A DNA stretch of 64,000 bases from contig NZ_VFMM01000003.1 in NCBI RefSeq assembly GCF_006715085.1, positions 558,001-622,000 on the forward strand, in the 5' to 3' direction. Positions 19,340-35,862 of this stretch are shown one piece after another. Made by a program: the position numbers and the translations under genes. Below the pieces are notes generated by a model. That model did no database searches and was not told the DNA's origin. It saw only the letters and a program-made list of their open reading frames with translations. The number at the start of each line of letters is the position of its first letter. Within the stretch, counting starts at the first letter, position 1. This stretch comes from Kribbella jejuensis (lineage in GTDB: Bacteria > Actinomycetota > Actinomycetes > Propionibacteriales > Kribbellaceae).

Positions 19340-19828
19340 ATGGCCGAGGTTGTGGTTCCGCTGACCGTGCGCGATCTCACCGAGGACGATCTGCCAGCCT
19401 GCAGCTGGTACGGGAATGCGACGGCGCTGGCGGCTGTAGCTGAGGCGATCCGGCGTAGGCGTCGTGGTGAAGTCGACTACCTCGCGGTCTGCACACCGTC
19501 GGGTCTACCGGTGGCCGTCGGGGGAGCGGACTATACGAAACCACCTGGCGCAGCGACCATCTGGCAACTATCAGTCCAGGCAGAACTACGCTCGTGCGGC
19601 ATCGGCACCCTACTCATCAACGCCTTGGAACAACGAATCCGCGCCCGGGGCCTGCACTGGGCCGAACTAGGCGTCGACGACAACCGCTCCCGTCCGCGCG
19701 CCTTGTACGAGCGCCTGGGCTACGTCGTCAGCGGCACCGAACCCGGTGCATGGGACGAGGAAGGCCCCGACGGCACCATAACCCGCTACGAAACCCGAAT
19801 AACGCTCCTCCGCAAGCAACTGCTCTGA
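19340..19828 (+). CDS. GNAT-family N-acetyltransferase
   Basis: 162 residues of GNAT fold: LTVRDLTEDDLPACSW, IWQLSVQAELRSCGIGTLLINALEQRIRARG (acetyl-CoA loop with SCGIGT) and YERLGYVVSG. ATG 19340 is chosen because the -10 TAGGCT (19328-19333) ends 6 nt before it, giving a leaderless message; the TTG at 19334 would lie upstream of the transcript. The acceptor is unknown. Confidence 0.85.
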   Translation: MAEVVVPLTVRDLTEDDLPACSWYGNATALAAVAEAIRRRRRGEVDYLAVCTPSGLPVAVGGADYTKPPGAATIWQLSVQAELRSCGIGTLLINALEQRIRARGLHWAELGVDDNRSRPRALYERLGYVVSGTEPGAWDEEGPDGTITRYETRITLLRKQLL

Positions 19829-19832
19829 GGGC

Positions 19833-20246
19833 TCAACGGTTCGCAGCGGTTGCTGTTTGGACGGCGGACAGGATGTTCGACAGGCCGGCTGGATTGGCCA
19901 GCTTCAGGTCGGCGAGATCGGTGGGGTGGAACCAGCGGAGGTCGTCGTGCTCGTCGGGCTCGGCGTTGACGGGCTCGCCGTCCCAGCGGGTGACGACGAA
20001 CGCGTACATGTGCAGCGCCGGGTCGCTGATCGTCATCGGGAACGGTACGGCGTCATGGATGTGGACGCCGAGTTCTTCCAGGCATTCCCGGCGTACCGCC
20101 TGGTCAGGTAACTCGCCGGCGTCGACATGCCCGCCGACCAGGTCCCAGCAATCGGGATAGTTCTGGCGCGCCGGGTGGCGATGCACCAGGAGCACCAGAC
20201 CGTCCCGTACAAGAGCAGCGACTGCGATCGGGATCTGGGCAACCAT
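19833..20246 (-). CDS. NUDIX hydrolase
   Basis: 137 residues with a complete Nudix box, GGHVDAGELPDQAVRRECLEELGV: G-x5-E-x7-R-E-x2-E-E-x-G is satisfied. It hydrolyses a nucleoside-diphosphate-linked substrate with a divalent metal; the substrate is not predictable. It converges on the GNAT gene with a 4-bp gap. Confidence 0.9.
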   Translation of the reverse strand: MVAQIPIAVAALVRDGLVLLVHRHPARQNYPDCWDLVGGHVDAGELPDQAVRRECLEELGVHIHDAVPFPMTISDPALHMYAFVVTRWDGEPVNAEPDEHDDLRWFHPTDLADLKLANPAGLSNILSAVQTATAANR

Positions 20247-20272
20247 GCCGGAACTCTAGGGGCCCTTCCTGC

Positions 20273-21070
20273 CTACTGTCCGGCGAGCTTAGCCACGACC
20301 GGTGCGAGGGTGTCGGCGAAGTCGGCGCCGATGACGAAGTACGAGAAGCCGATCTCCTCACGCCGGCGTTCGATCTCCTCGGCGGCCGCGGCGGGATCAC
20401 TCGGAAGGATGACGAGCGAGTCGGCCGTGCGCAGCGCCGCGGTGTCGAGGTCGGGCGGCGCCATGAACGGCGCGACCCCGTCACCGACGGCGGCGATGTG
20501 CTGGGAGAGTTCGATGTCCCGGCTGGTCGAAAACCCGCGGACCATCTTCGTGGTTTCCGCCCGGTCGTTGTCCGGTCCGAGTACGAACGTGACCGCGTCA
20601 GCGACCTCGAGCGCCAGCGCCTGCGACTTCGGCCCGGCGACCGCCATGACAACCGGCGTGTGCAGCTCGGATCCGTCGAACGTACGCAGCTGCTCGACGG
20701 TCTCGCGCATCCTCGTGCGACGCTCAGCGGGGGAGACGGCGGGCAGTCCCAACTCCACCTCGATCCCGGGGCGCCCGGCGCCGATGCCCATCTCGAAGCG
20801 ACCGTCCGTAAGTACTGAAAGCGAGTGCGCCTCCCACGCCATACTCAACGGCTCACGCAGCGCCGCCGCGTACACCCACGACCCGACCCGCAGATCAGTC
20901 AACGCAGCCGCGGTCGCCAGCGTAGGCGCAAGTGCAGGCTGCCACGTGGGTACGTCGGGCATCAACAACGTCGAGTACCCGAGATCAGCGATCCGCCGCA
21001 CCCGATCCCGCCACGCCGGCAGCTCCGAAGTAATCGGCGCAACAACCCCAAACCGAAACGCTCGCGTCAT
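20273..21070 (-). CDS. LLM-class F420-dependent oxidoreductase
   Basis: 265 residues of luciferase-like TIM-barrel type: FRFGVVAPITSELPAWRDRVRRIADLGYSTLLMPD, LTDLRVGSWVYAAALREPLSMAWEAHSLSVLTDGRFEMGIGAGRPG. The GRFEMGIGAG segment is diagnostic of F420/FMN LLM proteins. ATG 21070 has AGGAG 8 nt upstream. The upstream in-frame 44 codons are not family-like and are excluded. Confidence 0.87.
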   Translation of the reverse strand: MTRAFRFGVVAPITSELPAWRDRVRRIADLGYSTLLMPDVPTWQPALAPTLATAAALTDLRVGSWVYAAALREPLSMAWEAHSLSVLTDGRFEMGIGAGRPGIEVELGLPAVSPAERRTRMRETVEQLRTFDGSELHTPVVMAVAGPKSQALALEVADAVTFVLGPDNDRAETTKMVRGFSTSRDIELSQHIAAVGDGVAPFMAPPDLDTAALRTADSLVILPSDPAAAAEEIERRREEIGFSYFVIGADFADTLAPVVAKLAGQ

Positions 21071-21183
21071 CACACTTCTCCTCAACTCTTGAACCCATAT
21101 CCGGCTCTTCAACCACTCAACGAACCAACCACGCTTCATCCGACAACCGCGGTACAACCTGTGAGTGTGCCAGGCTGACAACT

Positions 21184-21708
21184 GTGAAAGGTTCCTTCCC
21201 AACCGGCGCCCCAGTCTGCATTCGAGACGCAGCGCCGGGGGAGGCCGATGTGCTCGCGGAGCTGCATGCCCGCTCGCGGGCTGCGTACTACGGCGCCGGC
21301 GGTCATGACGTACCAGCGGTCCCTGACGATCAGTACCGCGAAGCGTGGCGGAAGATGGTGCTGGATCCTCGCCTCGAGGTCCTCGTAGCGGTCGTAGGCG
21401 CTGACATCACCGGTGTACTCACGCTGGACGCCAACGGAGTCTTCCCAACGAATGCGCCGAACGAAACGCGCGTCCGCCTGGTCGGCATCTTCGTCGACCC
21501 AAGCAATTGGTCGAGCGGCATCGGCAGCACCCTGATGGACCGTTTCCTCACCACCACCCGCCACGCTGACGCCGTAGGCGAGGTCGACGTCTGGGAGCGA
21601 AACTCCCGCGCAATCCGCTTCTACAAACACCACGGCTGGACCCGCGACGGAACCACCCGCCCAGGCCCCGCCAACACAAACTATGTAGGTTTCGTACACC
21701 TACCATGA
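21184..21708 (+). CDS. GNAT-family N-acetyltransferase
   Basis: 174 residues: VCIRDAAPGEADVLAELHARS, VRLVGIFVDPSNWSSGIGSTLMDRFLTTTRH (acetyl-CoA loop SSGIGS) and VWERNSRAIRFYKHHGWTRDG. This is a typical small-molecule acetyltransferase. It starts at GTG 21184. It is the last intact gene before the decayed mobile-element island. Confidence 0.85.
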   Translation: MKGSFPTGAPVCIRDAAPGEADVLAELHARSRAAYYGAGGHDVPAVPDDQYREAWRKMVLDPRLEVLVAVVGADITGVLTLDANGVFPTNAPNETRVRLVGIFVDPSNWSSGIGSTLMDRFLTTTRHADAVGEVDVWERNSRAIRFYKHHGWTRDGTTRPGPANTNYVGFVHLP

Positions 21709-21871
21709 CCTGACGCAACTGGCAGGGAACGATCATCGTGGCCCGTCGTCGAGAGTTGCTCGATGCGGACGAGGCCCGTGGCTGGTGCCCGAGATGAGTT
21801 AGCCGGCATTGCCGCAGTTCAGCGGTGTCGGCGGCGCTCGAAAACTGAACACTTTCGGCGGTGAAAAGTGA

Positions 21872-22864
21872 GCACTCGACGGGTGGACCGGATCGATCCG
21901 GTGGTTCCGCGAGAACGTGGCGCGGTTGCGGCCCGAGCAGCGGCCGATCGATCCGGTCGACCGGATCGTGTGGGCGGCTGGTGATGCCGCGCAGTGTGAT
22001 TTGTGGTTCCCGCCGCGGAAGATCCCGTTGGAAGACGGCAGCGCGAAGTTGTTGCCGGTGCTGGTGATCACGGCCGCGTATTCGAGGTTCGTGACGGCGC
22101 GGATGATCCCGACCCGCAAGACCGAGGACCTGCTGCTGGGGTCGTGGGAGCTGATCCAGCAACTGGGCCGGGTTCCGCGCCGGCTGATCTGGGACAACGA
22201 ACCCGGCATCGGCCGCGGGCAGCGTCGCGCCGAAGGCGTTGGGGCGTTCATGGGCACGCTGGCCACCAAACTCGTGCTGCTGCCGCCCAGAGACCCTGAA
22301 TCCAAGGGCATCGTGGAGCGCCGCAACGGCTGGTTCGAGACCTCGTTCATGCCCGGCCGGACGTTCAGTTCACCGGCAGATTTCAACGCCCAGTTCACCG
22401 ACTGGCTGACGAAGGCGAACGCCCGGGTGGTCCGCATGATCAAGGCCGCACCGGCCGATCTGGTCGACACGGATCGGGCGGCGATGCTGGCGTTGCCGCC
22501 GATCCCGCTGCACCTGGGCTGGCGCAACAAGATCCGGCTGGCCCGCGATTACTACGTCCGGCTCGACACCAACGACTACTCCGTCGATCCAGCCGTGATC
22601 GGCCGGATGGTCGACGTCGCCGCAGACCTGGAACGGGTGCGGGTCCGCGCCGAAGGCCGCGTCGTGGCCGAACACTGCCGGGTCTGGGCCAGAGGAACCA
22701 CCGTCACCGACCCCGGCCACGTTCAGACAGCCGCCTGGCTGCGCAAACAGTTCCAGCAACCCCGTGCCGTCGGGGGTGTCGCGGCCGCCGGTGATGATCT
22801 GGCCCGCGATCTCGCCGACTACGACCGCGCCTTCGGGCTCACCGCCGAGGAAGGAATCAGCTGA
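21872..22864 (+). pseudogene. istA: IS21-type transposase IstA, N-terminally truncated
   Basis: The frame opens after an in-frame TGA at 21869. Recognisable protein begins near 21884 (WFRENVARLRPEQRPIDPVD). The DDE catalytic domain is present: QCDLWFP (first Asp), RRLIWDNEPG (second Asp) and PRDPESKGIVERRNGWF (Glu). The Mu-C-like tail includes LDTNDYSVDP. The N-terminal helix-turn-helix, roughly 80-100 residues, is missing. Internal starts are not expected to give an active protein. Confidence 0.82.
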
Positions 22865-23016
22865 TGGCCGCCACCAAATCAACGAGGAACGCCGCTGCGG
22901 CCACGGAGGCACTCAAGCAGATCACCTATCTGGCCGCCGCGCTGAAAGCACCCCGGATCACCGAGGCCGCCGCCCGGCTGGCCGATCAAGCCCGTGACGC
23001 CGGCTGGACCCACGAG
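22864..23016 (+). pseudogene. istB: IstB ATPase, N-terminal stub
   Basis: ATG 22864 overlaps the istA stop, as is usual for IS21. The stub reads as IstB for about 50 codons (EALKQITYLAAALKAPRI, LADQARDAGWTHE) and then changes to unrelated sequence at about 23016. The Walker ATPase domain is absent. Confidence 0.8.
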
Positions 23017-23156
23017 GTACCGCACCCGAGCTCCAAGACACGTCCGCCTTGCCGATCGGCCGCAGACCTGTAGAAGTCGACAGCCTGCGCACTTCCGGGG
23101 AACAACCAGTCGTACAACGTCGCGTCCGAGTAGAACTGCTCGCTGATGAGACTCAC
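23017..23156 (-). pseudogene. N-terminal fragment of a SAM-dependent methyltransferase
   Basis: GTG 23156 has AAGGAG just upstream. The frame reads MSLISEQFYSDATLYDWLFP and on to GGRVLELGCGT, the start of class I motif I, then runs into IstB antisense sequence. About 46 codons of a gene that should have about 240 remain. The IS remnant or a later deletion removed the rest. Confidence 0.7.
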
Positions 23157-23309
23157 GCTCCTTGCCGGATCTGCCTTTTCGGCCAACAACAACGTGGGCC
23201 ATTGTCGCGAGCAGGCCGAGATCCTTCTACGGCTTATCGAAGCGACCGCACGTCGGCACGATCGAGCGTTCTGCGTGCACACAGGGCGTCCGGGCGATCA
23301 GGCCATCTG

Positions 23310-23475
23310 ATGCCTGGCTGCGATGTATTGGTAATGGAGCCGATGGCGTGGTGCTCGATGGTCGACGGGTGGTAGCCAAGCGCACAGCCGATGATCGGCA
23401 GCGGGCCGACCTTGGTCAGCTCGTGCAACGTGCCGAGCCGCGCTGCGCGCGTGCTGAAGACCGCCTTGAGCCTTC
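23310..23475 (-). pseudogene. Possible tail of a tyrosine-recombinase-type integrase
   Basis: On the minus strand the frame reads RAARLGTLHELTKVGPLPI then IGCALGYHPSTIEHHA. This resembles the conserved C-terminal extension of many actinobacterial site-specific integrases (leucine-rich helix, then a LGxHxxTxxxxA helix). No catalytic residues are present. The rest of 23157-23765 holds nothing else recognisable. Confidence 0.35.
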
Positions 23476-23765
23476 GCCGCAGGCTGGGACCGTGAATGTG
23501 CCGGCCGGGGGAGTAGCCGCCGTTCGGGTGCGATGCGGTGAGGTCATTGCCGGACGTGACAGCGAGTTGGCGTACGGGCCCGTCCGAGGGGGAGAGAGAG
23601 AGCAAATTCAGTCTTTCACAAGCGGATGGTGACGACGTCGGTCGAGGTGACGTCGTCCCAGGCTGGCAGGAACGGGAGTTGATCAACCGGGAGTTGGAGT
23701 GTCTCTCTGGCATGCTCGCCAGATGTTTCGGCACCTGGCGGAGCGCCATTCGCGCCGACCGATGG

Positions 23766-24827
23766 TCAGCTGGTTGTGAGCCACGGGCCGACGGGATGCC
23801 GGGGCAGGGCTGAGCGCGGGTCATCGAGGATCGCTCTGGTCTGCGCCGCGTACTCGCGGCTTGCCCGCCAGCATCCCTCCGGCGGTTGCAGGCCGTCGGC
23901 GAACCGGGACCCCATCGCCTCGAGGGTGCCGCGCAGGGATTCGATCACGGCTGCGCCATGCCGGGTACGCCAGGTCCGTTCGACCTGTGTCACCCGCTCG
24001 ATGTAGGCGTCACGCTCCCGTAGCCCTGCCGGGGTCAGTACGGCGACCCTGCCACGGCTCGTCTCGGCCGGACGTAGGGTGATCATTCCCGACCGTTCCA
24101 GCACTCCCAGCGCCGGGACCACCGGTCGGCCCGTCAGACCGGTCCGCCCGGGCAGCTCCCGGACCCGGACTGGGTGGGCACCGAGCGCCGGCAAGAAATT
24201 CGCGGCGATCGCCATCGGCAGTGGCGAATCGTTCTCGACCTCCCGCGCGAAGGCCTGTAGTGCGGCCGCGAGCGGATCAGCGATCGAACCGTCCGCGGCC
24301 ATGCCCGTCACTACCTCCAGCAAACTTCGGAGCTCACCCATCGCGTCCTGGCCGAAGCGTTCCGTCCACCGATCGTCCGTCGCCGCGATGATCGGCGGCC
24401 AGAGTTCCTTGGCGCGGCGACAGACAGCCTTCGGGCTGAGCACCGAGGTACCGCGCAGCCGGCGACTGCTGCCGTATCCGTCCCTCGACGGTCGCCGGAT
24501 CGGTGCATCGGTCTGCAGCCGTACCTCGACGTACCCCCACCGCTCGACGCCGCCGATCATCGGGAACAGCTCTTTCTCGGTCCAGCCCGTCCGCTCGAGC
24601 AGCGCGGCGACCGTCGTACCCGGGTCGTCGACGTGGCGCAGCAGCGGCCAGAACACGACAGGCAGCTTGAACCCGGGGAATCGCGACCGTGCCAGTTGTG
24701 CTTCGAACTCGTTGTCCAGCTCGATCCGGTACGCGATCAGCGCCTGTGCCAGCAAGGTCGACAAGGCAGGCTCCGGCACCCGCCGCGAGTCACAGTCATC
24801 GTCGCCGAGGACCCTTTTGTTGGTCAT
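23766..24827 (-). CDS. Winged-helix (MarR-like) regulator, duplicated-domain type
   Basis: 353 residues with two winged-helix-like segments. One is at about 60-105 (VAALLERTGWTEKELFPMIGGVERWGYVEV). The other is at about 215-275 (HPVRVRELPGRTGLTGRPVVPALGVLERSGMITLRPAETSRGRVAVLTPAGLRER), the clearer MarR-type wing. Helical linkers lie between and after. It is likely a DNA-binding regulator of unknown target. It is intact and GC-rich, unlike the decayed DNA on both sides. ATG 24827. Confidence 0.6.
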   Translation of the reverse strand: MTNKRVLGDDDCDSRRVPEPALSTLLAQALIAYRIELDNEFEAQLARSRFPGFKLPVVFWPLLRHVDDPGTTVAALLERTGWTEKELFPMIGGVERWGYVEVRLQTDAPIRRPSRDGYGSSRRLRGTSVLSPKAVCRRAKELWPPIIAATDDRWTERFGQDAMGELRSLLEVVTGMAADGSIADPLAAALQAFAREVENDSPLPMAIAANFLPALGAHPVRVRELPGRTGLTGRPVVPALGVLERSGMITLRPAETSRGRVAVLTPAGLRERDAYIERVTQVERTWRTRHGAAVIESLRGTLEAMGSRFADGLQPPEGCWRASREYAAQTRAILDDPRSALPRHPVGPWLTTS

Positions 24828-24951
24828 GCGGTGATGCTAGGAGCCGACGCCGACAGCCGATGTCGTTGCATTGCCTTGACGTGCACAAACGGCGTCAGCA
24901 CGGGAGTTGGTAAGCCGGGAGTAGCAGGAGAGCGGGCGCCCGCGTTGCGGC

Positions 24952-26008
24952 GTGAACGAGCCGGGTATGCGTCCCCACATGCAGGCGCGATCGGAGGACG
25001 ACAGGACTGGCGGCCGCACTCTGGCTGTCAGACTTGCATTATGGCTGAGCGGCAGCTGGATGGCGGGATCGCGAACGCAGGCCGGGTTGTCCGTGTCGGT
25101 CCGCATGCTAGCCCTCGCCGACAGGCTGCTCTTAGGCCAAAACCAGCAAAAATGGGCTCCTGGCCTAACTCAAGCGAGCGGCGGCTGGGATGACGACCAA
25201 AACCGAGTGATCATCCTTGCCCGGAATGACGCCGGTGAAAACTCGGCCTGGACCGAGCGTGTGAGCGCGTTGCACGACGACAGGGTTCGGCTCCAACTCT
25301 TTACACCGAAGCCGGGCGTGCCTCTCGTAGAGCCCCTTGGTCGGCTCACCGACCACGAACCATGGTATGGCGGTGACTGGCTGCACCCTAGGGCCATCAC
25401 CGCCATTTACAACAATTCGATCTGCACCTCGGGGTTCAACTGGAAGCTCTGGTCGACTGGCAGGTATCTCGGCAGCACCGCCAACCACTGCTACCAAGGA
25501 ACGGACATCTGGTACCACAACAAGCAGGTCTACGGAGAGATCCTCGACAGATTTCCAGCGGTCGACACCATGCTGATCCAGGACAACAGCAACCCGTATG
25601 CCTACTACGCTGCTGTCTGGGTGGGACCTGTGGATACCGACGTTTCGCGGGCCGTCCGGGGCATTAAAACTTCTTATGCAGTAGGCCAGTTGGTTGCGTT
25701 CAGCGGGTCACGAAGCGGACTTCACACGGCGCACATAACGCACACCAGGGAAAATTTTCAACGGTATCCCCGTCGTTGTGACGGATGGTTCTTTCGCGCA
25801 GATGGGTGACTCGGGAGGGCCATGGTTGACTACCATGGGCCCAAACGACCCCTACCCGGGCGACGTATGGGCGTGGGGTCAACTGTCGGGCCACAGCAGT
25901 GCCCCCGGATACGAGGGAGACGTGTTCGTGGGACTTAACGACATCAGCAGTACTGTCTCTGCATCTATCTGCATAGCTGCCTCCGCGGGTAGCATTACCT
26001 GTCGTTGA
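24952..26008 (+). pseudogene. Trypsin-fold secreted serine protease, frameshifted
   Basis: The frame to 25758 holds the catalytic His in YLGSTANHCYQG, an Asp in FPAVDTMLIQD and a CTSGFN segment. An extra T in the TTTT run at 25755-25758 shifts the frame. The +1 frame continues VVVTDGSFAQMGDSGGPWL, with the catalytic Ser, to a stop at 26008. The catalytic triad thus survives but is split. The N-terminal 100 residues are poorly conserved and give no clear signal peptide, so the start is uncertain. The base composition is visibly poorer in GC than the flanks, suggesting transfer. Confidence 0.75.
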
Positions 26009-26131
26009 CAAACGACCCGCAAGACCAAGGGGTCCGCGCGGGTGGTACCGCGCCCGGCTTCCTTGTCGGCCGGTACTCGAACCGTCGCCGCGCATCTACA
26101 CCGGGCGGTACCCACCCAGTTTGGGGGATTG

Positions 26132-26521
26132 ATGGTTGACGAGACGGGGAATCCCGCGAATGGTGCGAAGCCTCGCAGAGGCAAACCGCGCCCGGCCATG
26201 CCAGGTCTGTCCCTTCAGCGGGGACTTCCCCTCCTGCAAATGCTTGCACAACTGACGGGTACCTTGGAGATCGATACGTCGACCAACTGCCTGACAGTCA
26301 ATAACGGGATAACGCTGGTCGACGTCGCTTGGCCACCAGGCTGGACTGTCGCCACCCGCGACAATGAAATCGCCCTGATCGATGCAGCCGGCCACACGGC
26401 CGGCAAGCTGGGCGACGAGGTCTACGTCGGCGGAGGCATGGTAGACCTGGCCAGAACGAACGTTGTTTCGTGCACGGGTCGCAAGGATGTGTTCGTGGCG
26501 ACTGGGCTCTCAGGTCCCTGA
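26132..26521 (+). CDS. Hypothetical protein with a small beta-rich domain
   Basis: 129 residues from ATG 26132 (GGGGA 6 nt upstream). After a basic proline-rich front, TGTLEIDTSTNCLTVNNGIT, VDVAWPPGWTVA and GDEVYVGGGMV resemble a beta-rich domain seen in actinobacterial secreted or lipoprotein hypotheticals (Cys, WP and GGG landmarks). There is no lipobox. Composition is like the neighbouring protease, about 120 nt upstream; the two may have arrived together. Function unknown. Confidence 0.5.
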   Translation: MVDETGNPANGAKPRRGKPRPAMPGLSLQRGLPLLQMLAQLTGTLEIDTSTNCLTVNNGITLVDVAWPPGWTVATRDNEIALIDAAGHTAGKLGDEVYVGGGMVDLARTNVVSCTGRKDVFVATGLSGP

Positions 26522-26837
26522 AGCAAGCACGTTTGGTATGCCGCCTAGGGTCGTCAATCACCTGCTCGAGGTTGGACATCGGGCTCCGGCACCGCAGCGA
26601 TCCTGCTGGCCAAAGGAAGGGCTGCTCGAGCCCGCAGGCCAGCGGCGCCGACACCCAGTTCGGGGCGCGGCGGAGCCGCCGCAGCATGTTCGGCCTGACC
26701 TCGCCGCAAGGTGCGATCATGAGCCCACGGCGGCGATGTCAGGGGCCCAGTGGTCGACATCGGTCATCCTGGCGGACCAATCGGCGTCGGCGAGCCGGTC
26801 CGGTCTTTGGCAGCGACGGGTTTCGAAGCTGCCTTTG

Positions 26838-26946
26838 TCAGGTGGGCTCGTGCGTGAGCCGGTAGGACTCGGTGCCGGTTTCGATGAGGTTGCCGCCAAA
26901 GGTGAGCCGGTCGACGATGGCGGCGGCCACGCCGAACTCAGCGCCT
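26838..26946 (-). pseudogene. istB: IS21-family remnant B: IstB C-terminal tail
   Basis: On the minus strand the frame reads AEFGVAAAIVDRLTFGGNLI, then ETGTESYRLTHEPT and stops at 26838-26840. AIVDRLTFGGNxIETGTxSYRL is the typical end of IstB. Upstream sequence is decayed. The rest of 26522-27180 shows no other gene. Orientation is opposite to remnant A. Confidence 0.6.
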
Positions 26947-27182
26947 GCCGAACGGTGCGCCAGCCCCACGCCATACTTGCGCTCCAAAGCCCTGTTCGAC
27001 AGACCGCCCACGAGTCACGGCGCAGAGCGGCATACAGGCTCCACCTTCGACTGACCTGGCGGCATCGGCTGCGCCCCCTCACTGCGCACAACGATCCTCC
27101 CCACCGCAGCCCCACCTGTGACGGCAAAATTCGCTGACAACTTCCGGCCCAACCAGCAGGTGCCGTCGCAATTCACGGAGAT

Positions 27183-27425
27183 CTGACGTCACAGAACGCC
27201 GTCAGAGCCAGGGTTCCGGAAGTCAAGCAGGGCAAGAATCGAATGCACCTCGACCTCCGGGTGGAAGACTTGCCGGCCGAGGTAGAGAGACTCGAGCAGC
27301 TTGGCGCCCGGCCGCTCTCCAACGAACTCACTGAACACGGCTTCCGTTGGGTCGTTCTCGCTGACCCAGAAGGAAATGAGTTCTGCGTCTTCGTTCCGCC
27401 GACGACCTCAGGTACGGCGGGATAG
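27183..27425 (+). pseudogene. C-terminal half of a VOC/glyoxalase-like gene
   Basis: The open frame reads RVPEVKQGKNRMHLDLRVED, then FRWVVLADPEGNEFCVFVPP, the second half of a VOC protein (KNRMHLDL and DPEGNEFCVF are family landmarks). The N-terminal half and a start signal are missing, although an internal ATG at 27243 exists. It is another truncated gene in the decayed island, about 140 bp from the dif-like site. Confidence 0.6.
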
Positions 27426-27565
27426 GCCAGGTCAGTTACACTGAGCAACTTCCCGGATTCGGCAAGAGTGCGCCCGCGATCAGGTGTCACGGACTACGGC
27501 GAAGTAGCGGGCGTAGGCAGCGGCAGAGTCGAGGGCGTGCCGCTCGATGCAACTCCCGTGATTTA

Positions 27566-27593
27566 AGTGCCGATAATGGACATTATGTCAACT
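27566..27593. other. dif chromosome-dimer resolution site (XerC/XerD target)
   Basis: Left arm AGTGCCGATAA, central six bases TGGACA, right arm TTATGTCAACT. From CCGATAAT to TGTCAA this matches the published actinobacterial dif consensus at every defined position, and it aligns with E. coli dif in an 11-6-11 layout. Dif lies in the terminus region of circular chromosomes. The surrounding intergenic stretch 27426-27919 contains no convincing gene. No xerC/xerD gene is nearby, as expected for a chromosomal site. Confidence 0.82.
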
Positions 27594-27919
27594 AGTCGGC
27601 TTCTGGCGGTGGTTGATGGGGTCGGGCCTGCTGTCCCCTGGTGAATGGCTCGCGCCCATGGCAGGCGGCTGTGGCCGTTCGTGGAGACTTCATGTACTGA
27701 GCCGGTGCTGGCTGGCAGTCGAGTGCTTGGTTGAAGGTCGAGGCATGGCGTACGTCGTGCGACTGAACGACGGACAGTTTCGCTGTCGTCAGCTGCTGGC
27801 GTCGGCGATGGCCCGGATGCTCGGTGCGTTGGTCGCGGCGATGGTTGGCTGTGGTGTGTCTCTGGGCCGATGGATGGGTGAAGGCTGTGGGTCAGGTGGG
27901 CGTGGCGGTCTGTGGATGG

Positions 27920-28690
27920 CTATGGGCGGGATGCTGTGAGTAGGTAGGTGGCAGGGAGGTGGGATGCCTGCTCCCCCAGGCCGTCGTACAAATCTGGTTC
28001 GGGGAATTCTTGGAGGGATTGGAGGGTGAGGCCTGCGTTGAGGGTGGCTGTGGCGACGGCGGCTAGGCTCCAGATGTAGCTGCGGTGTGGGACGGTTGGT
28101 GTGCCGATGCGCTGCGTTACTTGTGGGGCCTTGGAGGGGTCGGTGTAGCCGTCGCGGTGGGTGCCGAAATAATCGCTGCTGATGGACAGGGAATTCGGGC
28201 CGCGGACGGTGAGTACTTCCCATAGGGGATGGTGTTCGCTGATTACCAGTACTCCCCCGGGGTTCAAGCGTTCGGCGACTATTTGGGTCCATTGTGTAAT
28301 ATCTGGGACCCAGCATAAACCGCCCCAGGAAATGTAGATGATGTCGAATCCGGTGATGGCCGGGTCGAGAGTCATCATGTCCTGCTCGATGAATTCGACC
28401 GGTAGGCCGAGGGCCTCCGCCTTGACGCGGCCCGTGGTCAGGTGGGACGGGGCGAGGTCGACGGCGGTCACTATTGCGCCGCGTTGGGCGAAGGTCAGGG
28501 ACTCGTCGCCTACCGAGCATGCCAGGTGGAGCACGCGGCGGCCGCGGACGTCCCCGATGGCTGCCAGTTCGGGTTCGGTCAGCGCGCTGCCGCCCTCGCG
28601 GAAGAACTCGAGCGGCTCCCCCGGGCGATGTGGAGCTAGCTGTTCCCAGTAGGTTCGGTTCTCGCGCACGACCTCCGAAGATTCAGTCAC
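27920..28690 (-). CDS. Class I SAM-dependent methyltransferase
   Basis: 256 residues: an N-terminal NRTYWEQLAPHRPGEPLEFF motif, then VLHLACSVGDESLTFAQRGA (motif I; the usual GCGxG reads ACSVG), VTAVDLAPSHL, IIYISWGGLCWVPD and LNPGGVLVISEHHPLW. The substrate is unknown. It is divergent from the phosphotransferase gene at 28734 with only 43 bp between them. Confidence 0.82.
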   Translation of the reverse strand: MTESSEVVRENRTYWEQLAPHRPGEPLEFFREGGSALTEPELAAIGDVRGRRVLHLACSVGDESLTFAQRGAIVTAVDLAPSHLTTGRVKAEALGLPVEFIEQDMMTLDPAITGFDIIYISWGGLCWVPDITQWTQIVAERLNPGGVLVISEHHPLWEVLTVRGPNSLSISSDYFGTHRDGYTDPSKAPQVTQRIGTPTVPHRSYIWSLAAVATATLNAGLTLQSLQEFPEPDLYDGLGEQASHLPATYLLTASRP

Positions 28691-28733
28691 AACACGTCAC
28701 GCTAGCAAGCGGAACTCGTGGAAAGGTGTTGGT

Positions 28734-29477
28734 GTGGACTTTGAGGCGGTGGCGCGCGCTGAGGTGGCCAATGCGCAAGCGAGGCCGGTGCGGATTGTTG
28801 ATGGCGTTGTGACACGGCCGGCGGGTTCCAACGCGGAGACTGTGCAGGGGTTTTTGCGGTTTCTGCGTGGGCGTGGGCTGGAATGTGTGCCCGAGCCGCT
28901 CGGGTTCGGCGACGGTGTGGAGATGCTACGGTTCATTCCCGGTGACAGCGGTGGCGATGCTTGGCGTCATCAGCACACGGATGAAGGTCTGGCGTCTGCG
29001 GCACGTTTGCTCCGGAGGATTCACGACGAGAGTCAAGCCTGGAACTCCCCCGCCGACGATCTCGTCTATTGCCACGGCGATCCCGGCCCGTGGAATTTCG
29101 TCTGGAAAGACAACAGCGCGGTCGGCCTGATCGATTGGGACTATCTTTACCGCGGCCCGCGCCTCGACGACATTGCGTACGCGTTGCACTGGTTCGTGCC
29201 ACTCCGTTCCGACGAGCTCGCCCTGCGCTGGCATCATTTCCCGGAAGTGCCCGATCGACGACATCGCATCAAGGTGTTCCTCGACGCGTACGGCGATCTG
29301 CCGAAATTCGACGTTGTCGGCGTGGTCACCGGCCGGATGGAGGCCACCCGCGACCTGGTACGCCGGCTCGCACACGAAGGACAGGAGCCACAACGGACTT
29401 GGGTCCACGACGGAGCCCTCGAACGCGAGGACGAGGAAATCGCCTGGGTCCGCCAGAATCGGACCCTCTTCACCTGA
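28734..29477 (+). CDS. Aminoglycoside-phosphotransferase-family kinase
   Basis: 247 residues of APH/choline-kinase fold. The catalytic loop is VYCHGDPGPWNFVWKD (Asp and Asn), followed by the metal-binding LIDWDYLYRGPRLDDIAYAL. The GTG start is at 28734. Many such proteins phosphorylate unknown small molecules, so the name does not prove aminoglycoside resistance. It is followed after 40 nt by the ABC exporter pair, possibly co-transcribed. Confidence 0.82.
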   Translation: MDFEAVARAEVANAQARPVRIVDGVVTRPAGSNAETVQGFLRFLRGRGLECVPEPLGFGDGVEMLRFIPGDSGGDAWRHQHTDEGLASAARLLRRIHDESQAWNSPADDLVYCHGDPGPWNFVWKDNSAVGLIDWDYLYRGPRLDDIAYALHWFVPLRSDELALRWHHFPEVPDRRHRIKVFLDAYGDLPKFDVVGVVTGRMEATRDLVRRLAHEGQEPQRTWVHDGALEREDEEIAWVRQNRTLFT

Positions 29478-29517
29478 AGCTTTGTGAATGGGATCACGAG
29501 CTGGCAGGATCTGCGCC

Positions 29518-31245
29518 ATGGGGCGTCTGCGAGAGCGGTTGGACAGGATGCCGGAGCGCTGGATCCCGCCAACAGATAGGGATCTCGCGAGCCCGTACCG
29601 CCTCCTGCTCTGGCTGACGCGCTCGCAGTCGCGCCGCGTCGCCCTCGGCGCGACACTCGGGATCTGCTGGATGGTCGGCCTCACGATCCCGCCCTGGGTA
29701 CTCTCCCGCGCGGTCGACCAAGGACTCGTCGCACGCAACACGCCCGCCCTGATCGAATGGGCCCTGATCCTCCTAGCCGTCACCGTCCTCAACGCACTCA
29801 TCGGCATCGCCCGGCACCGCACGATGACGAAGATCCGCATGGACGCCGCGTTCCGCTCCGTCCGCGCGACCGTCTGGCACACGTCTCGCCTCGGCGCATC
29901 GCTCAGCAGACGCATGACCGCAGGCGAAGTCGTCACGGTCGGCATCTCCGACGTCTACACAGTCGCGATGGCCCTCACCGTCACCGGTCCGGGCATCGGC
30001 GCGGTCGTCGCGTACGCCGTGGTCGCGGTCGTCCTCTTCACCATCTCTCCCCTACTCGCCGCCGTCGTTCTGGCCGGCGTACCGCTGCTCGCCATCGCCG
30101 TCGGCCCGTTCCTGCAACGCATCGAGCGCACCGGCGGCACGTACCGCACTCACCAGGGCACGCTGACGACGCGCCTCGTCGACGTACTCGCCGGCCTGCG
30201 CGTCCTGAACGGCCTCGGCGGGAAGAGGTACGTTGCCGAGAGGTACGGACGCGAGTCGCAGAACCTGATCGCCCACGGCTACCGCGTCGCCGGCCCGTCC
30301 AGTTGGGTCGGTGCATTGTCGACCGGCTTGCCTGCGCTGTTCCTCGCCGCGGTCGTGTGGTTATCCGCCCGGATGGCCGCCACGCACGCGATCACGATCG
30401 GCGACGTCGTCGCGGTCTACGGGTACGTCGCCGTACTGGTCGTCCCGGTCGCGTCGCTGATCGAGGGCGGCGGCGACCTCGCCCGCGCGCGCGTCGCCGG
30501 GCAGCGCATCATCGATCTCCTGAACCTGCCGGTCGCACCCGGCACCAACGGTCGTACGCCGACTCAGGACGGCCCGCTGATCGATCCCGAATCCGGCGTG
30601 ATCATCCGCCCGGGCCTCCTCACCGCGCTCGTCGCCGCGAAACCCACGGAGGCGATCGCCGTGATCGAGCGCCTCGGCAACCTCAACACCAACAGCGTGA
30701 CCTGGGCCGATATCCCCATCGAAGAACTCGACCGCGAGCAGTTCCGGCATCGGTTGGTTGTCGCCGACAACGATGCCGAGATCTTCGCCGGCACACTGCG
30801 CGACGTCGTTGCGGGACGGCTGCAAGCGGAGGACGACAAGATCCGTACGGCGCTCAACGTCGCCGTCGCGGATGACATCGTCGAGGCACTCCCCGACGGC
30901 CTCGACACCGCGATCGCCGCCGGCGGGACCGATCTGTCCGGCGGCCAGCGCCAACGGATCCGCCTCGCCCGCGCGGTCTACGCCGAACCCGACGTACTGC
31001 TTGCGATCGACCCCACCTCAGCGCTCGACGCCAACACCGAAGCAGCCGTCATCGACCGCATCCGCGAAGCCCGCTCCAACACCACGACCGTGATCACCAC
31101 GACTTCTCCACTCGTACTCGACCGCGCCGACGAGGTCATCGTCCTGGTGAACGGAAAGTTGTCGGCGGCAAGCACCCACGCGACCTTGCTGCGCAGCGAT
31201 CCCTACTACCGCGACCTGGTCTCGCGCGCCCAGGACGACGAATGA
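29518..31245 (+). CDS. ABC exporter half 1 (TMD-NBD) with degenerate Walker A
   Basis: 575 residues: six membrane segments (about 45-310), then an ATPase domain. Where Walker A should be, the sequence reads GLLTALVAAKPTEAIAVIERL, with no GxxGxGK(S/T). The signature LSGGQRQRIRLARA is intact, and the Walker B region reads LLAIDPTSALD without the usual catalytic Glu. It should not bind ATP normally but can supply the signature to the partner. ATG 29518 is preferred. Its stop overlaps the partner gene start (ATGA). It probably exports a drug or lipid. Confidence 0.86.
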   Translation: MGRLRERLDRMPERWIPPTDRDLASPYRLLLWLTRSQSRRVALGATLGICWMVGLTIPPWVLSRAVDQGLVARNTPALIEWALILLAVTVLNALIGIARHRTMTKIRMDAAFRSVRATVWHTSRLGASLSRRMTAGEVVTVGISDVYTVAMALTVTGPGIGAVVAYAVVAVVLFTISPLLAAVVLAGVPLLAIAVGPFLQRIERTGGTYRTHQGTLTTRLVDVLAGLRVLNGLGGKRYVAERYGRESQNLIAHGYRVAGPSSWVGALSTGLPALFLAAVVWLSARMAATHAITIGDVVAVYGYVAVLVVPVASLIEGGGDLARARVAGQRIIDLLNLPVAPGTNGRTPTQDGPLIDPESGVIIRPGLLTALVAAKPTEAIAVIERLGNLNTNSVTWADIPIEELDREQFRHRLVVADNDAEIFAGTLRDVVAGRLQAEDDKIRTALNVAVADDIVEALPDGLDTAIAAGGTDLSGGQRQRIRLARAVYAEPDVLLAIDPTSALDANTEAAVIDRIREARSNTTTVITTTSPLVLDRADEVIVLVNGKLSAASTHATLLRSDPYYRDLVSRAQDDE

Positions 31246-32978
31246 ACGGCCAGCTGCCAGTCGCGACCCCCGCCGAGGTCCGCGCCGCCGCAATCCGCGA
31301 CCTCGGAGCCGATCGGAGAGCCGTCGCCGGAATCATCCTCGTCAACGGCCTGGCCGCCGCCGCGGGCCTGGTCGCACCCTGGCTCCTCGGCCGCATCATC
31401 GACACGATCCGCGCCGGCGACGGCAACGTGCTCGGCGCGGTCGACCGTCTCGCGTTCGGCGCACTCGTCTTCACCGTCGTCCAGACCGTGCTGTCGTGGT
31501 GGGCGCTGAAGATCGGCTACCGCTTCGGCGAACGTACGGCGGCGCGCGTGCGCGAACGCTTTCTCAACCGGACGCTCGCGCTGCCTCCTCGTTCCGCTGA
31601 CCATCTCCCGGCCGGCGACCTGATCGCCCGCGGCAGCACCGACGCCTCGCTCGTCGCCTCCACGCTGCGGTCTGCCGTACCCGAGGTTCTGGTCGCGATC
31701 GTCCACGCGCTGTTCCTCATTGTCGCGGTCCTCGTACTCGATCCGCGCCTCGGCCTGTGCGGAATTGTCTGCCTGATCGGTGTCGCGGCAGCCGTCCGGT
31801 GGTACGTGCGGCGCGCGCGCCCGGCGTACCTCGCCGTCGCCGCGACCGGCGCCGAGCTGGCTGACGCGGTAGCCGGTACGGAGAAAGGCGCGCGGACGAT
31901 CGAGCTGCTCGGCCTCGAGCGCCGGCGGCAGGAGGTCACCGAGAACGCGATCACCCGCGCCCGGTCCGCGCGGCTCGACGCGTTGTGGCTGCGGACCGTT
32001 TTGTTCCCGTGGGCCGATATCTCGCTCGCGCTGCCGGTGGTCGGCGTGCTGCTGGTCGGCGGCGCGCTGTATTTCAACGAACTCGTCAGCCTCGGCGTCG
32101 TGGTGACGGCAACCGTGTACCTCCGCCAACTGGTCGGACCGCTCGACACGTTGATGCTGTGGATCGAACAGCTGCAAGGCGCCGGCGCGTCATACGCCCG
32201 CGTCGAAGGCCTAGCCGATCTGCCGGCCGAGAACCACGCGGCCGCGCCGACCCGCACCATCGGCGACCGGATCCAGGTGACGAACGCGCACTACAGCTAC
32301 ACCGGCGCTCGCGACGTACTTCGTGGGATCGACCTGCAGGTACAACCCGGCGAACGCCTCGCGATCGTCGGTACGTCCGGCGCCGGAAAGTCGACGCTCG
32401 CACGGCTCCTCGCGGGTCTCGACCGGCCGCACACCGGGTCGGTGACGATCGGCGGTACGCCGGTGGCCGAGCTCCCGCCGGAGCAGCTCCGCGAACACGT
32501 CGTACTGATCACCCAGGATCATCACGTCTTCCACGACACAATCCGCGACAACCTGCTGATCGCGAAACCGGACGCTTCGGACGCCGAGCTGTACGCCGCA
32601 CTCACCGCAGTCGGAGCCGATGTGGGGGCCGACGGCTGGAACGAGCTGGACCGCCAGATCGGCGACGACCTCGACGACGCCTCCGCTCAGCAGCTGTCGC
32701 TGGCGCGCGTCGTCCTCGCGAACCCGCACACACTGATCCTCGACGAGGCGACCGCCCTCCTCGACCCGAAGACGGCCCGTCGTACCGAGCAGTCGCTGGC
32801 CGGCGTACTGCGAGGCCGCACGGTGATCGCCATCGCCCACCGCCTGCAAACCGCACACGACGCGGACCGAATCGCCGTCATGGAAGCCGGCCAACTCGTC
32901 GAACTCGGCACCCATGACGAACTGGTCCGAGCCGACGGAGTCTACGGCCGCTTGTGGCGCGCCTGGCATGCTGAGTGA
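31242..32978 (+). CDS. ABC exporter half 2 (TMD-NBD) with degenerate signature
   Basis: 578 residues: six membrane segments, then an ATPase domain with intact Walker A (GTSGAGKSTLARLL), Q-loop (LITQDHHVF), Walker B with Glu (LILDEATALLD) and H-loop (IAIAHRL). The signature is broken: DDASAQQLSLARVVL in place of LSGGQ. Together with half 1 it leaves one complete ATP site. It overlaps half 1 by 4 nt, so the two should be made in equal amounts as a heterodimer. Confidence 0.88.
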   Translation: MNGQLPVATPAEVRAAAIRDLGADRRAVAGIILVNGLAAAAGLVAPWLLGRIIDTIRAGDGNVLGAVDRLAFGALVFTVVQTVLSWWALKIGYRFGERTAARVRERFLNRTLALPPRSADHLPAGDLIARGSTDASLVASTLRSAVPEVLVAIVHALFLIVAVLVLDPRLGLCGIVCLIGVAAAVRWYVRRARPAYLAVAATGAELADAVAGTEKGARTIELLGLERRRQEVTENAITRARSARLDALWLRTVLFPWADISLALPVVGVLLVGGALYFNELVSLGVVVTATVYLRQLVGPLDTLMLWIEQLQGAGASYARVEGLADLPAENHAAAPTRTIGDRIQVTNAHYSYTGARDVLRGIDLQVQPGERLAIVGTSGAGKSTLARLLAGLDRPHTGSVTIGGTPVAELPPEQLREHVVLITQDHHVFHDTIRDNLLIAKPDASDAELYAALTAVGADVGADGWNELDRQIGDDLDDASAQQLSLARVVLANPHTLILDEATALLDPKTARRTEQSLAGVLRGRTVIAIAHRLQTAHDADRIAVMEAGQLVELGTHDELVRADGVYGRLWRAWHAE

Positions 32979-33066
32979 CCGCGCCCGGCCGCCCGCGACG
33001 TACGAATTGTCGGATGGGCGTGGTTAGGTTCGTTGCAGTGGTGTGGCCCACTGAACGGAGATGGTG

Positions 33067-34230
33067 ATGGCGGGTGGCGGGTTCTCGTCGCGGCGGCTGG
33101 CGCGGTTGCGGGAGTTGCAGGAGCGGTACGTCGCGTCGGGTGTTGTGCCGGGGGTGCTGACGGTCCTCGCGCGGCGGGGTGAGGTGTACGTCGAGGCGAC
33201 CGGGCGGCACGCGTTCGAGGGGGCCGGGGCGGAGCGTCCAATGGCGACCGACACCGTTGTCCGGATGGCCTCGATGACGAAGCCCCTGGTTGCGGCGTGC
33301 GTGATGACGCTGATCGAGGACTGTACGTTGCGGCTCGACGATCCGATCGACGAGTTCGTACCGGAGCTGGCGAACATGAGGGTGCTCGCGGATCCGGCCG
33401 GTCCGTTGGAGGACACGGTCGCGGCGGCGCGGCCGATCACCGTACGGGACGTGCTGACATTTACGCTCGGGACCGGCATGGCGCCCGAGAATTCTCCGAT
33501 TTCGGCCGCGATGGACACGCTCGGCGGACCGACGTTGGACGAGTGGGTGGCCGGGCTGGGGCAGCTTCCGCTGGTTCATCAGCCGGGCGAACGGTGGCTG
33601 TACGACACCGGTGCCGACGTGGCCGGCGTACTGATCCAGCGGGCTGCGGGGAAATCGTTCGGTGCGGCGTTGCGGGAGCGGATCCTCGAGCCGCTCGGGA
33701 TGAAGGGAACCGGCTTCAGCGTGGATCCGGCGAGCCTGGACCGGTTCGCGGCGGCGTACCACCAGGACAATGCGCCGACCGGTGAGGCCGTCGTACTGTC
33801 CGACGAGGAGTACTGGAGCAAACCGAAGACGCTCGAAGCCGGCAGTGGCGGACTCGTGTCGACGGCCGACGACTACCTAACGTTCGCGTCGGCGCTGATG
33901 GCGGGCGGCGCGGGAGTCCTGTCCCGCGCCTCGGTCTCACTGATGACAAGCGACCAGCTGACGCCGAAGCAGCGCGAGATCTCCGGCTTCTGGCCCGGCT
34001 ACTTCGAGAACACCAGCTGGGGCCTCGGACTCGGACTGGTCACCCGCCGCACCACGCTGGGCCCATCAGCCGGCAGTTACGGCTGGTCCGGCTTCTACGG
34101 CACCGCCTGGTACAACGATCCGGCCGAAGACCTCGTCGGGATCCTGATCCAGCAACGGGCCCACGCGGGCGACTCCCGGCTCCCCCTCCCCCGAGACTTC
34201 TGGACCACCGTCTACCAAGCCCTCGACTAA
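33067..34230 (+). CDS. Class C beta-lactamase-like serine hydrolase
   Basis: 387 residues of the beta-lactamase/esterase (PBP-like) fold. The nucleophile motif is SMTK (about residue 69), with WLYDTGADVAGVLI at the YxN position and a C-terminal GWSGFYGTAWYNDP at the KTG position. No signal peptide is visible, suggesting a cytosolic esterase or peptidase rather than an antibiotic-degrading enzyme. ATG 33067 has CGGAG 6 nt upstream; the ATG at 33061 abuts that site. Confidence 0.82.
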   Translation: MAGGGFSSRRLARLRELQERYVASGVVPGVLTVLARRGEVYVEATGRHAFEGAGAERPMATDTVVRMASMTKPLVAACVMTLIEDCTLRLDDPIDEFVPELANMRVLADPAGPLEDTVAAARPITVRDVLTFTLGTGMAPENSPISAAMDTLGGPTLDEWVAGLGQLPLVHQPGERWLYDTGADVAGVLIQRAAGKSFGAALRERILEPLGMKGTGFSVDPASLDRFAAAYHQDNAPTGEAVVLSDEEYWSKPKTLEAGSGGLVSTADDYLTFASALMAGGAGVLSRASVSLMTSDQLTPKQREISGFWPGYFENTSWGLGLGLVTRRTTLGPSAGSYGWSGFYGTAWYNDPAEDLVGILIQQRAHAGDSRLPLPRDFWTTVYQALD

Positions 34231-34256
34231 CTGGCCGGCAAAGAATGTAGGGGCGG

Positions 34257-34285
34257 TGTCGTAGTGGGCGGTTCCGGTTCGTTGG
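34257..34285 (+). promoter_or_regulatory. Possible ECF42-dependent promoter
   Basis: TGTCGT (34257-34262), 17 nt, then CGTTGG (34280-34285). ECF42 sigma factors are reported to recognise a TGTCGA-type -35 in front of their DGPF-protein genes. The match here is one base off and the -10 is weak. Confidence 0.35.
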
Positions 34286-34318
34286 AGGGGTGTACGGGGT
34301 TACTGGAGGGAGATGGGG

Positions 34319-34642
34319 ATGCAGTATCTGATTTCGGTGATCGATGACAAGACCGGGTCCGCTACGGACGACGAGATGGCGGCAATCACCGCGTTCAACA
34401 AGCAGTTGGTGGCCGACGGGCACTGGGTGTTCGCGGGCGGATTGAGTTCGCCCAGCGACGCGACCGTGATCGACGGGCGCGGCGGCGAGCCGATTTTCAC
34501 CGACGGGCCGTTCGTGGAGACGAAGGAGTACATGGCCGGGTTCTGGGTGTTCGAGGCCGACGATCTGGACGTCGCGCTGAAGCTCGCGGCCGGGGCGTCG
34601 AAGGCGTGCAACCGGCGGCTCGAGGTGCGGCCGTTCCTGTGA
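34319..34642 (+). CDS. YCII/DGPF-domain protein
   Basis: 107 residues: MQYLISVIDD, WVFAGGLSSPSDATVI and TDGPFVETKEYMAGFWVFEADD. The TDGPF motif names the DGPF family, genetic partners of ECF42 sigma factors. The biochemical role is unknown. ATG 34319 has GGAGGG about 8 nt upstream. The stop overlaps the sigma gene start (GTGA), so the two are translationally coupled. Confidence 0.88.
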   Translation: MQYLISVIDDKTGSATDDEMAAITAFNKQLVADGHWVFAGGLSSPSDATVIDGRGGEPIFTDGPFVETKEYMAGFWVFEADDLDVALKLAAGASKACNRRLEVRPFL

Positions 34643-35862
34643 GCGATGTCGAGGAAGCGATCACCCAGGCCCATCGCAACGAGTGGGCGCGGGTGGTCGC
34701 GTCCTTGGCGAAGCGGTTCGGCGACCTCGACATCGCCGAGGAATCGGCCGCGGAGGCGTTCGCGGCCGCGGTCGAGCGCTGGCCGGCCGACGGCGTACCG
34801 CCGAACCCCGGCGCCTGGCTGACCACCACCGCGAACCGCAAGGCGATCGACCGGATCCGCCGCGAGAACAAGCGTGACGACAAACAGAAGGAGGCTCAGA
34901 TGTCGTACGACGAACCGCCCGAGCCTCTCGGCGTGATCGACGACGAGCGGCTGCGGCTGATCTTCACATGCTGCCACCCCGCGCTGGCGATGGAGACCCG
35001 CGTCGCGCTCACGCTCCGCCTGGTCGGCGGGCTGACCGTACCGGAGATCGCCCGCGCGTTCCTCGTCCAGGAGACCGCGATGGGCCAGCGGATCACCCGC
35101 GCGAAGGCGAAGATCAAGGCGGCGCGGATCCCGTACCGGGTGCCGGCCGCGGAGGACCTGCCGAGCCGGATGTCCGGCGTACTCGCGGTGCTGTTCCTGG
35201 TGTTCAACGAGGGGTACCTGGCGACCGGTCCGGACACCGACCCGGTCCGCCAGGATCTGACCGCGGAGGCGATCCGGCTCACGCGGCTGATCCGCGCGCT
35301 GCTGCCGGAGGACGGCGAGGTCGCGGGGCTGCTGGCGTTGATGCTGCTCACCGAGGCCCGCCGGACCGCCCGCGTCTCGCAGACCGGCGAGCTGGTTGCC
35401 CTCGACGAGCAGGACCGCGGCGCTTGGGACACCGCGATGATTGCCGAGGGCCACGATCTCGTCCGGGAGCGGCTCGCGACCCGGGTCCCGCCCGGGCGTT
35501 ACCAGATCCTTGCCGCGATCAACGCCGTACACACCTCGGCGCGCGACATCCGCGACACGGACTGGTCGCAGGTCGTCGCGCTGTACGACCAGCTCGCGCG
35601 GATCGACCGCTCGCCCATCGTCGCTCTGAACCGCGCGATCGCGGTTGCGGAGCTGGACGGACCGGACGTCGCGCTGGCGATCGTCGACGGGCTGGGCGAC
35701 AAGCTGTCGGCGTACCACCTGTTCCACGCGACCCGCGCGGATCTGCTCCGCCGCCAAGGGCGGAGCGAGGAGTCGCGGGCGGCGTACGACGCGGCGATCG
35801 AGCTCGCGGGGAACACCGCGGAGGTCGCCTACCTGACTCGCCGGCGGGCGCAGCTGTGCTGA
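34639..35862 (+). CDS. ECF42-group sigma factor
   Basis: 407 residues. Sigma region 2 is AHRNEWARVVASLAKRFGDLDIAEESAAEAF. Region 4 is LTLRLVGGLTVPEIARAFLVQETAMGQRITRAKAKIK. A long C-terminal extension (about 200 residues, helical TPR-like) includes the family segment LFLVFNEGYLATGP. ECF42 sigmas have no anti-sigma factor and rely on this extension for activity. The overlap with the DGPF gene confirms the group. Confidence 0.9.
   Translation: MSDVEEAITQAHRNEWARVVASLAKRFGDLDIAEESAAEAFAAAVERWPADGVPPNPGAWLTTTANRKAIDRIRRENKRDDKQKEAQMSYDEPPEPLGVIDDERLRLIFTCCHPALAMETRVALTLRLVGGLTVPEIARAFLVQETAMGQRITRAKAKIKAARIPYRVPAAEDLPSRMSGVLAVLFLVFNEGYLATGPDTDPVRQDLTAEAIRLTRLIRALLPEDGEVAGLLALMLLTEARRTARVSQTGELVALDEQDRGAWDTAMIAEGHDLVRERLATRVPPGRYQILAAINAVHTSARDIRDTDWSQVVALYDQLARIDRSPIVALNRAIAVAELDGPDVALAIVDGLGDKLSAYHLFHATRADLLRRQGRSEESRAAYDAAIELAGNTAEVAYLTRRRAQLC

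What the first reader, a model, noticed from the sequence alone, without database searches (positions are those of the whole stretch)
27566..27593. Chromosomal dif site, marking the replication terminus
The 28-bp site (arms AGTGCCGATAA and TTATGTCAACT around TGGACA) matches the published actinobacterial dif consensus (CCGATAAT-two bases-ACATTATGTCAA) at all defined positions in that core. It lies in an intergenic stretch beside a decayed mobile-element island. Established knowledge: XerC/XerD recombine dif to resolve chromosome dimers, and dif sits where replication ends on circular chromosomes. So the window probably spans the terminus.
Basis: partly seen in the sequence, partly recalled or inferred. 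Interest (0 to 1): 0.82.

Follow-up and report, generated by a model that had tools for sequence, protein, structure and literature searches.

The report
Chromosome dif site of a Kribbella
This 28-base site is very probably the spot where a soil bacterium's own enzymes separate two accidentally joined chromosome copies before division; it is a standard landmark, correctly recognised, and the short DNA arrows that may lead the cell's DNA pump to it can be read as well.

Summary
The genus, inferred to be Kribbella from contig lengths, has one exact core CCGATAA-NNN-ACATTATGTCAA in each of 38 of 38 genomes. In 8 of 8 single-contig relatives among 20 searched for dnaA it lies 0.42-0.50 of the chromosome from dnaA. 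A 7-mer polarity scan that did not use the dif position put the strongest switch of the 1.07-Mb contig in a 4.4-kb interval that holds dif: GGGGGAG points toward dif in 281 of 289 copies, and in 339 of 342 in six relatives. XerD, XerC-like and FtsK-gamma genes are present. Two corrections. The GC-skew maximum is 21 kb from dif, on the XerD-arm side (16-36 kb in six relatives), so dif marks the terminus region, not a proven fork-meeting base. The neighbourhood is an insertion-prone gap with one transposase-like gene, not a clear mobile island. New member of a known kind; the useful extra is GGGGGAG as candidate FtsK-orienting motif.

The parts
27566..27576 (+). XerC-side arm AGTGCCGATAA (first 4 bases vary in the genus, the last 7 invariant)
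   Evidence: arm assignment by alignment with E. coli dif (recalled) and F. alni dif (PMC3025954)
27577..27582 (+). 6-bp central region TGGACA; first 3 bases vary in the genus, last 3 (ACA) invariant
27583..27593 (+). XerD-side arm TTATGTCAACT; positions 27583-27591 invariant in 38 of 38 genus genomes
   Evidence: no second TTATGTCAACT within 1 mismatch in the window
23588..23594 (+). nearest GGGGGAG on the left, pointing toward dif
   Evidence: contig position 581588
27971..27977 (-). nearest GGGGGAG on the right, pointing toward dif (three more within 1.5 kb of dif)
   Evidence: contig position 585971
2800..37500 (.). variable gap around dif: about 35 kb here between blocks that are about 2.5 kb apart in relative G028; the nearer relatives G020 and G029 share parts of it
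   Evidence: blocks end at -24.8 kb and start at +9.95 kb from dif here; -1.7 and +0.8 kb in G028
21917..22861 (+). transposase-like frame (Mu-transpos_C_2; weak rve), the only mobile-element gene seen near dif
27138..27422 (+). glyoxalase-family piece matching only profile positions 44-106 of 106, 144 bp before dif

Best explanation
It is the single chromosomal dif site of a Kribbella with, by inference, one circular chromosome. XerC binds the left arm and XerD the right arm and they exchange strands at the borders of the 6-bp centre, turning a chromosome dimer into two monomers at division. FtsK is loaded in the right direction by short G-rich oriented motifs, here most likely (C)GGGGGAG(T), pumps DNA until it reaches dif and activates XerD. 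Shown here: site, uniqueness, conservation, position opposite dnaA in relatives, the motif polarity switch at the site, presence of xerD, ftsK and a xerC-like gene. Inferred from E. coli: binding, cleavage and activation, and that GGGGGAG is what FtsK reads.
For: Unique in the genome. One exact core in each of 38 of 38 genus genomes; in the 30 with loci, conservation falls off outside the site except for the first base after it (0.93). About opposite dnaA in 8 of 8 single-contig relatives among 20 searched. GGGGGAG 148:6 left and 2:133 right of dif, strongest of the 7-mers with 40 or more copies in a scan that did not use dif; 0 of 2000 strand shuffles reach its statistic (not corrected for having picked the best word). 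339 of 342 toward dif in six relatives. GC skew changes sign nearby. XerD over its curated cut-off (337.1 vs 329.6 bits), FtsK gamma 83.1 vs 30.6 bits. With up to 2 mismatches the core is in 4 of 4 sampled genomes of the order and 45 of 46 of the class outside one large-genome family.
Against: The GC-skew maximum is 21 kb off (16-36 kb in six relatives), always on the XerD-arm side. The XerC candidate is below its curated cut-off (296.9 vs 335.15 bits). In relative G028 one wrong-way motif puts the switch 504-615 bp off dif. Circularity and distance to dnaA cannot be measured in the own 4-contig assembly. No binding or recombination data; Kono et al. 2011 state that no experimentally confirmed dif was available for Actinobacteria (passage).
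Confidence: 0.95

Rival explanations
1. The site is a Xer-type attachment site left by an integrated element (IMEX or phage that uses dif), not the resident dif.
For: It lies in an insertion-rich gap with a transposase-like frame 4.7 kb away; phage contigs and a Rep-like contig elsewhere carry the same core.
Against: Only one copy in the genome and no second right arm in the window; main flanking blocks keep the same order and direction relative to dif in own and six relatives; present in 38 of 38 genus genomes; no tyrosine-integrase or phage family among the 20 window frames scanned.
Confidence: 0.02
2. It is the dif, but replication forks normally meet 15-35 kb away on the XerD-arm side, so the site does not mark the terminus itself.
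For: Cumulative GC-skew maximum displaced to that side in 7 of 7 genomes; in this window the excess G right of dif (27594-50000) is in uncalled DNA (+327) and minus-strand genes (+213) more than in plus-strand genes (+55). Kono et al. argue that termination need not be at dif (passages); [quoted passage not shown]
Against: The seven genomes share the flanking genes, so this is one inherited observation, not seven; skew is weak (about 0.02); G028 has a nearly equal maximum 40 kb on the other side (350 vs 379); relatives were read only within 100 kb of dif.
Confidence: 0.3
3. The GGGGGAG polarity is only leading-strand mutation bias and says nothing about FtsK.
For: The G-rich strand follows the G-richer leading strand over most of what was read. 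Right of dnaA both the motif and the skew are slow to turn: cumulative skew has its minimum at +2.5 kb but stays nearly flat to about +59 kb.
Against: Bias of this word (97%) far exceeds the skew (about 2%) and the bias of most other G-rich 6-8-mers. The switch at dif is sharp although the skew maximum is 16-36 kb away.
Confidence: 0.3

Closest known systems
dif sites of Actinobacteria predicted by Kono et al. 2011 (PMC3025954; passages seen), e.g. Frankia alni CACGCCGATAATGCACATTATGTCAAGT
   Same: 23 of 28 positions, 18 of 22 arm positions; near the skew shift; single copy
   Different: Differs in the first bases and in the centre; Kribbella is not mentioned in that paper's main text
E. coli dif / XerCD / FtsK / KOPS (GGGNAGGG; PMC2680272, PMC13342612, passages seen)
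   Same: 11-6-11 layout, 21 of 28 positions (E. coli sequence recalled); motif polarity switches at dif
   Different: Candidate motif is (C)GGGGGAG(T), not GGGNAGGG; no binding shown
AIMS (architecture imparting sequences; PMC5993296, passages seen)
   Same: Strand-biased oligomers oriented toward the terminus
   Different: Within about 585 kb left and 482 kb right of dif the density shows no clear rise toward dif (19-36 copies per full 100-kb bin); nearer the origin only sampled

Membership tests
chromosomal dif (XerCD) | 28 bp, two 11-bp arms around 6 bp, matching known actinobacterial dif | tested here: met
chromosomal dif (XerCD) | single copy per chromosome | tested here: met
chromosomal dif (XerCD) | lies opposite the replication origin | tested here: met
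   8 of 8 single-contig relatives among 20 searched, shorter arc 0.42-0.50; own genome is in 4 contigs, so only compatible there
chromosomal dif (XerCD) | near the GC-skew shift | tested here: met
   21 kb from contig maximum; displaced to the XerD-arm side, see text
chromosomal dif (XerCD) | oriented FtsK-guiding motifs converge on it | tested here: inconclusive
   GGGGGAG converges on it; that FtsK reads this motif is not tested
chromosomal dif (XerCD) | xerC and xerD in the genome | tested here: inconclusive
   XerD over cut-off; XerC best family match but below cut-off
chromosomal dif (XerCD) | ftsK with gamma domain in the genome | tested here: met
chromosomal dif (XerCD) | bound and recombined by XerC/XerD | not testable with these tools
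   needs purified proteins or a plasmid assay
IMEX / phage attachment site at dif | duplicated or hybrid dif at element ends | tested here: not met
KOPS | polarity switch at dif | tested here: met
KOPS | polarity switch at the origin | tested here: inconclusive
   switch somewhere right of dnaA, ragged over tens of kb or more
KOPS | bound by FtsK gamma and orients translocation | not testable with these tools
   gamma domain resembles the P. aeruginosa domain of 2ve8, no binding data

The most novel reading that the evidence does not exclude
(C)GGGGGAG(T) is the FtsK-orienting motif of Kribbella, distinct from E. coli KOPS; it converges sharply on dif, while the GC-skew switch lies about 16-36 kb to the XerD-arm side and the motif's origin-side switch lies tens of kb or more to the right of dnaA, so pump orientation and replication polarity are set by separate landmarks.
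Probability: 0.4. Interest if true: 0.45.

Novelty: new member of a known kind. Interest (0 to 1): 0.3.

Why it matters
It fixes the terminus region of this genus's chromosome and the reading direction of its arms, which helps to order contigs. The candidate motif makes FtsK guidance in an actinobacterium directly testable: a passage read states that no experimentally confirmed actinobacterial dif was available in 2011, and full-text searches of the held library for GGGGGAG with FtsK (2 papers, unrelated by title, not read) and for CTCCCCC with 'replication terminus' (0 papers) found nothing on it.

Tried and rejected
IMEX or prophage attachment site: rejected, single copy and no half-site repeat in the window. 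Chance match: rejected. Gene strand as the cause of the displaced skew maximum: not supported in the window, where uncalled DNA and minus-strand genes right of dif carry the excess G, but only 64 kb was tested and uncalled DNA left of dif has an excess too (+239). The question whether GGGGGAG converges on dif in other families of the class did not complete. Literature: 'Kribbella' with 'dif' and with 'replication terminus' found 0 papers in the held library; KOPS with Actinobacteria and FtsK listed 9 papers, of which passages of five were seen (PMC3025954, PMC5993296, PMC11898615, PMC13342612, PMC11537254); this says nothing of subscription papers.

Full report
WHAT WAS CLAIMED. A 28-bp dif site at 27566-27593, marking the terminus.

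OBSERVATION. The letters are there exactly. The site is unique in the window, with no match in any of 100 shuffles, and unique in the 7,505,702-base, 4-contig genome at up to 3 mismatches. The window is contig 3, 558001-622000; the site is 585566-585593 of that contig, whose length is 1,067,679. From base composition the 19 defined core positions are expected about 8e-7 times.

ORGANISM. The genus is therefore Kribbella, by inference. The same scan of named genomes listed four places: three Kribbella and one MAG labelled Candidatus Nanopelagicales.

CONSERVATION. The full 28-mer is found within 3 mismatches in 26 of 38 genus genomes. The core CCGATAANNNACATTATGTCAA, sought with up to 3 mismatches, is exact and occurs exactly once in 38 of 38; three genomes (G017, G027, G028) have one extra 3-mismatch place each. 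In the 30 genomes with loci, columns 5-11, 15-26 and 28 are invariant, 12-14 vary, and conservation falls off outside the site except for the first base after it (0.93). A variable centre between fixed arms is what Xer recombination allows, since only the two partners need to agree (established knowledge). In a phylum sample of 398 genomes (core, up to 2 mismatches) 90 match: own, 4 of 4 of the same order, 45 of 46 of the class outside family f4, 0 of 23 of family f4, and 40 of 324 of the rest of the phylum, where the pattern may be too narrow to mean absence. Family f4 consists in this sample of one genus of 5.8-11 Mb genomes; that it is Streptomyces, with linear chromosomes that need no dif, is a guess, not a result.

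POSITION. Of the 20 relatives searched for dnaA, 8 are single contigs; in 8 of 8 the shorter arc from dnaA to the site is 0.42-0.50 of the chromosome, G017 being the least balanced (sizes of G033 and G034 are rounded). In the own genome dnaA is on contig 1 at 3,151,388, so the distance cannot be measured; contig lengths and motif strands are compatible with a balanced arrangement.

SKEW AND POLAR MOTIFS. Contig 3 shows mostly positive GC skew on the left and mostly negative on the right, in 25-kb windows with exceptions on both sides; the cumulative maximum is at 606,532, 21 kb from dif. A scan of the 7-mers with 40 or more copies for a strand switch, made without using the dif position, ranks GGGGGAG first (289 copies) with its switch between 581,588 and 585,971; dif lies in that 4.4-kb interval, 0.4% of the contig. 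Several of the next-ranked words overlap GGGGGAG and are not independent; TGGGGGA, CCGGGGG and GGGGGAC put their switch 19-68 kb to the left. 281 of 289 copies of GGGGGAG point to dif; CGGGGGAG 175 of 177, GGGGGAGT 86 of 86. In six relatives read for about 100 kb on each side, 339 of 342 GGGGGAG copies point to dif, and the switch interval holds dif in 5 of 6; in G028 it is 504-615 bp off.

RESULTS AGAINST A TIDY PICTURE. First, the GC-skew maximum lies on the XerD-arm side by 21 kb here and by 16-36 kb in six relatives. These genomes share the flanking genes, so this counts as one inherited fact, and in G028 a nearly equal maximum lies 40 kb on the other side. It may reflect fork meeting beside dif, or gene content. 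Second, the motif does not switch at dnaA: in the 98 kb to its right, 10 of 12 copies keep the left-arm strand. The cumulative skew has its minimum 2.5 kb right of dnaA but is nearly flat to about +59 kb, so the two do not clearly disagree there. With the 9-mer CGGGGGAGT, 79 of 81 copies left of dnaA on contig 1 are on the minus strand and 9 of 10 right of it on the plus strand, the first plus copy 72 kb and the last minus copy 142 kb to the right (the first 100 of 190 places are listed, among them 8 of 9 plus on contig 2). The read-backwards control word is much rarer (31 against 190). So the origin-side switch is displaced or ragged.

GENES. The genome has a XerD over its curated cut-off and a XerC-like protein below its cut-off, and one FtsK gamma domain. 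The gamma domain aligns with the P. aeruginosa domain of 2ve8. At the positions that I take to match E. coli R1300, E1303 and E1306, residues named as contributing to KOPS recognition (PMC2680272, passages), it has R, D and E; this mapping is by eye through the P. aeruginosa sequence, with E. coli numbering recalled, and is weak.

SURROUNDINGS. dif sits in a gap between conserved blocks. The gap is about 2.5 kb in G028 and about 35 kb here; G020 and G029 share parts of it. Among the frames scanned here are a transposase-like one, a NUDIX and a luciferase-family gene, a glyoxalase piece, a methyltransferase and an APH-family frame, an ABC-transporter pair and a PF00144 (beta-lactamase/serine hydrolase family) protein. 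No duplicated half-site was found in the window, so the insertions show no sign of using Xer. A variable origin-distal region is described for Micromonospora (PMC11537254, passages).

VERDICT. A genuine, ordinary dif site. The part worth a specialist's time is GGGGGAG as candidate KOPS in an actinobacterium and its imperfect fit with the skew and origin landmarks.

Noticed in passing
L004:4706-4727, L007:106-127 (IMG/VR contigs): Two small viral-collection contigs share an identical actinobacterial dif core with identical near flanks; L004 has a Rep_1 (replication protein) match just below cut-off. Possibly an element that uses the host Xer system.
   Followed up: partly
L006:870-891: A 12-kb viral contig with terminase, portal and head-protease genes carries the dif core next to the terminase gene; a candidate dif-using phage.
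   Followed up: partly
L005:11744-11765: A viral contig with an RIIA-like gene about 1 kb away also carries the dif core.
   Followed up: partly
own genome C1:3151388-3250000: GGGGGAG mostly keeps its left-arm strand (10 of 12) in the 98 kb right of dnaA, where cumulative GC skew is nearly flat to about +59 kb.
   Followed up: partly
window 27594-64000 and six relatives: Cumulative GC-skew maximum lies 16-36 kb to the XerD-arm side of dif in seven Kribbella genomes.
   Followed up: partly
own genome C3:627487-627987 (L012): A tyrosine recombinase of 370 aa, XerC/XerD-like but far below cut-offs, lies 42 kb from dif just outside the window; its role is unknown.
   Followed up: no
family f4 of the phylum sample (23 genomes, e.g. 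G059, G129, G424): None of 23 large genomes of this one family has the core within 2 mismatches, while 45 of 46 other genomes of the class do; would fit a linear-chromosome genus.
   Followed up: no
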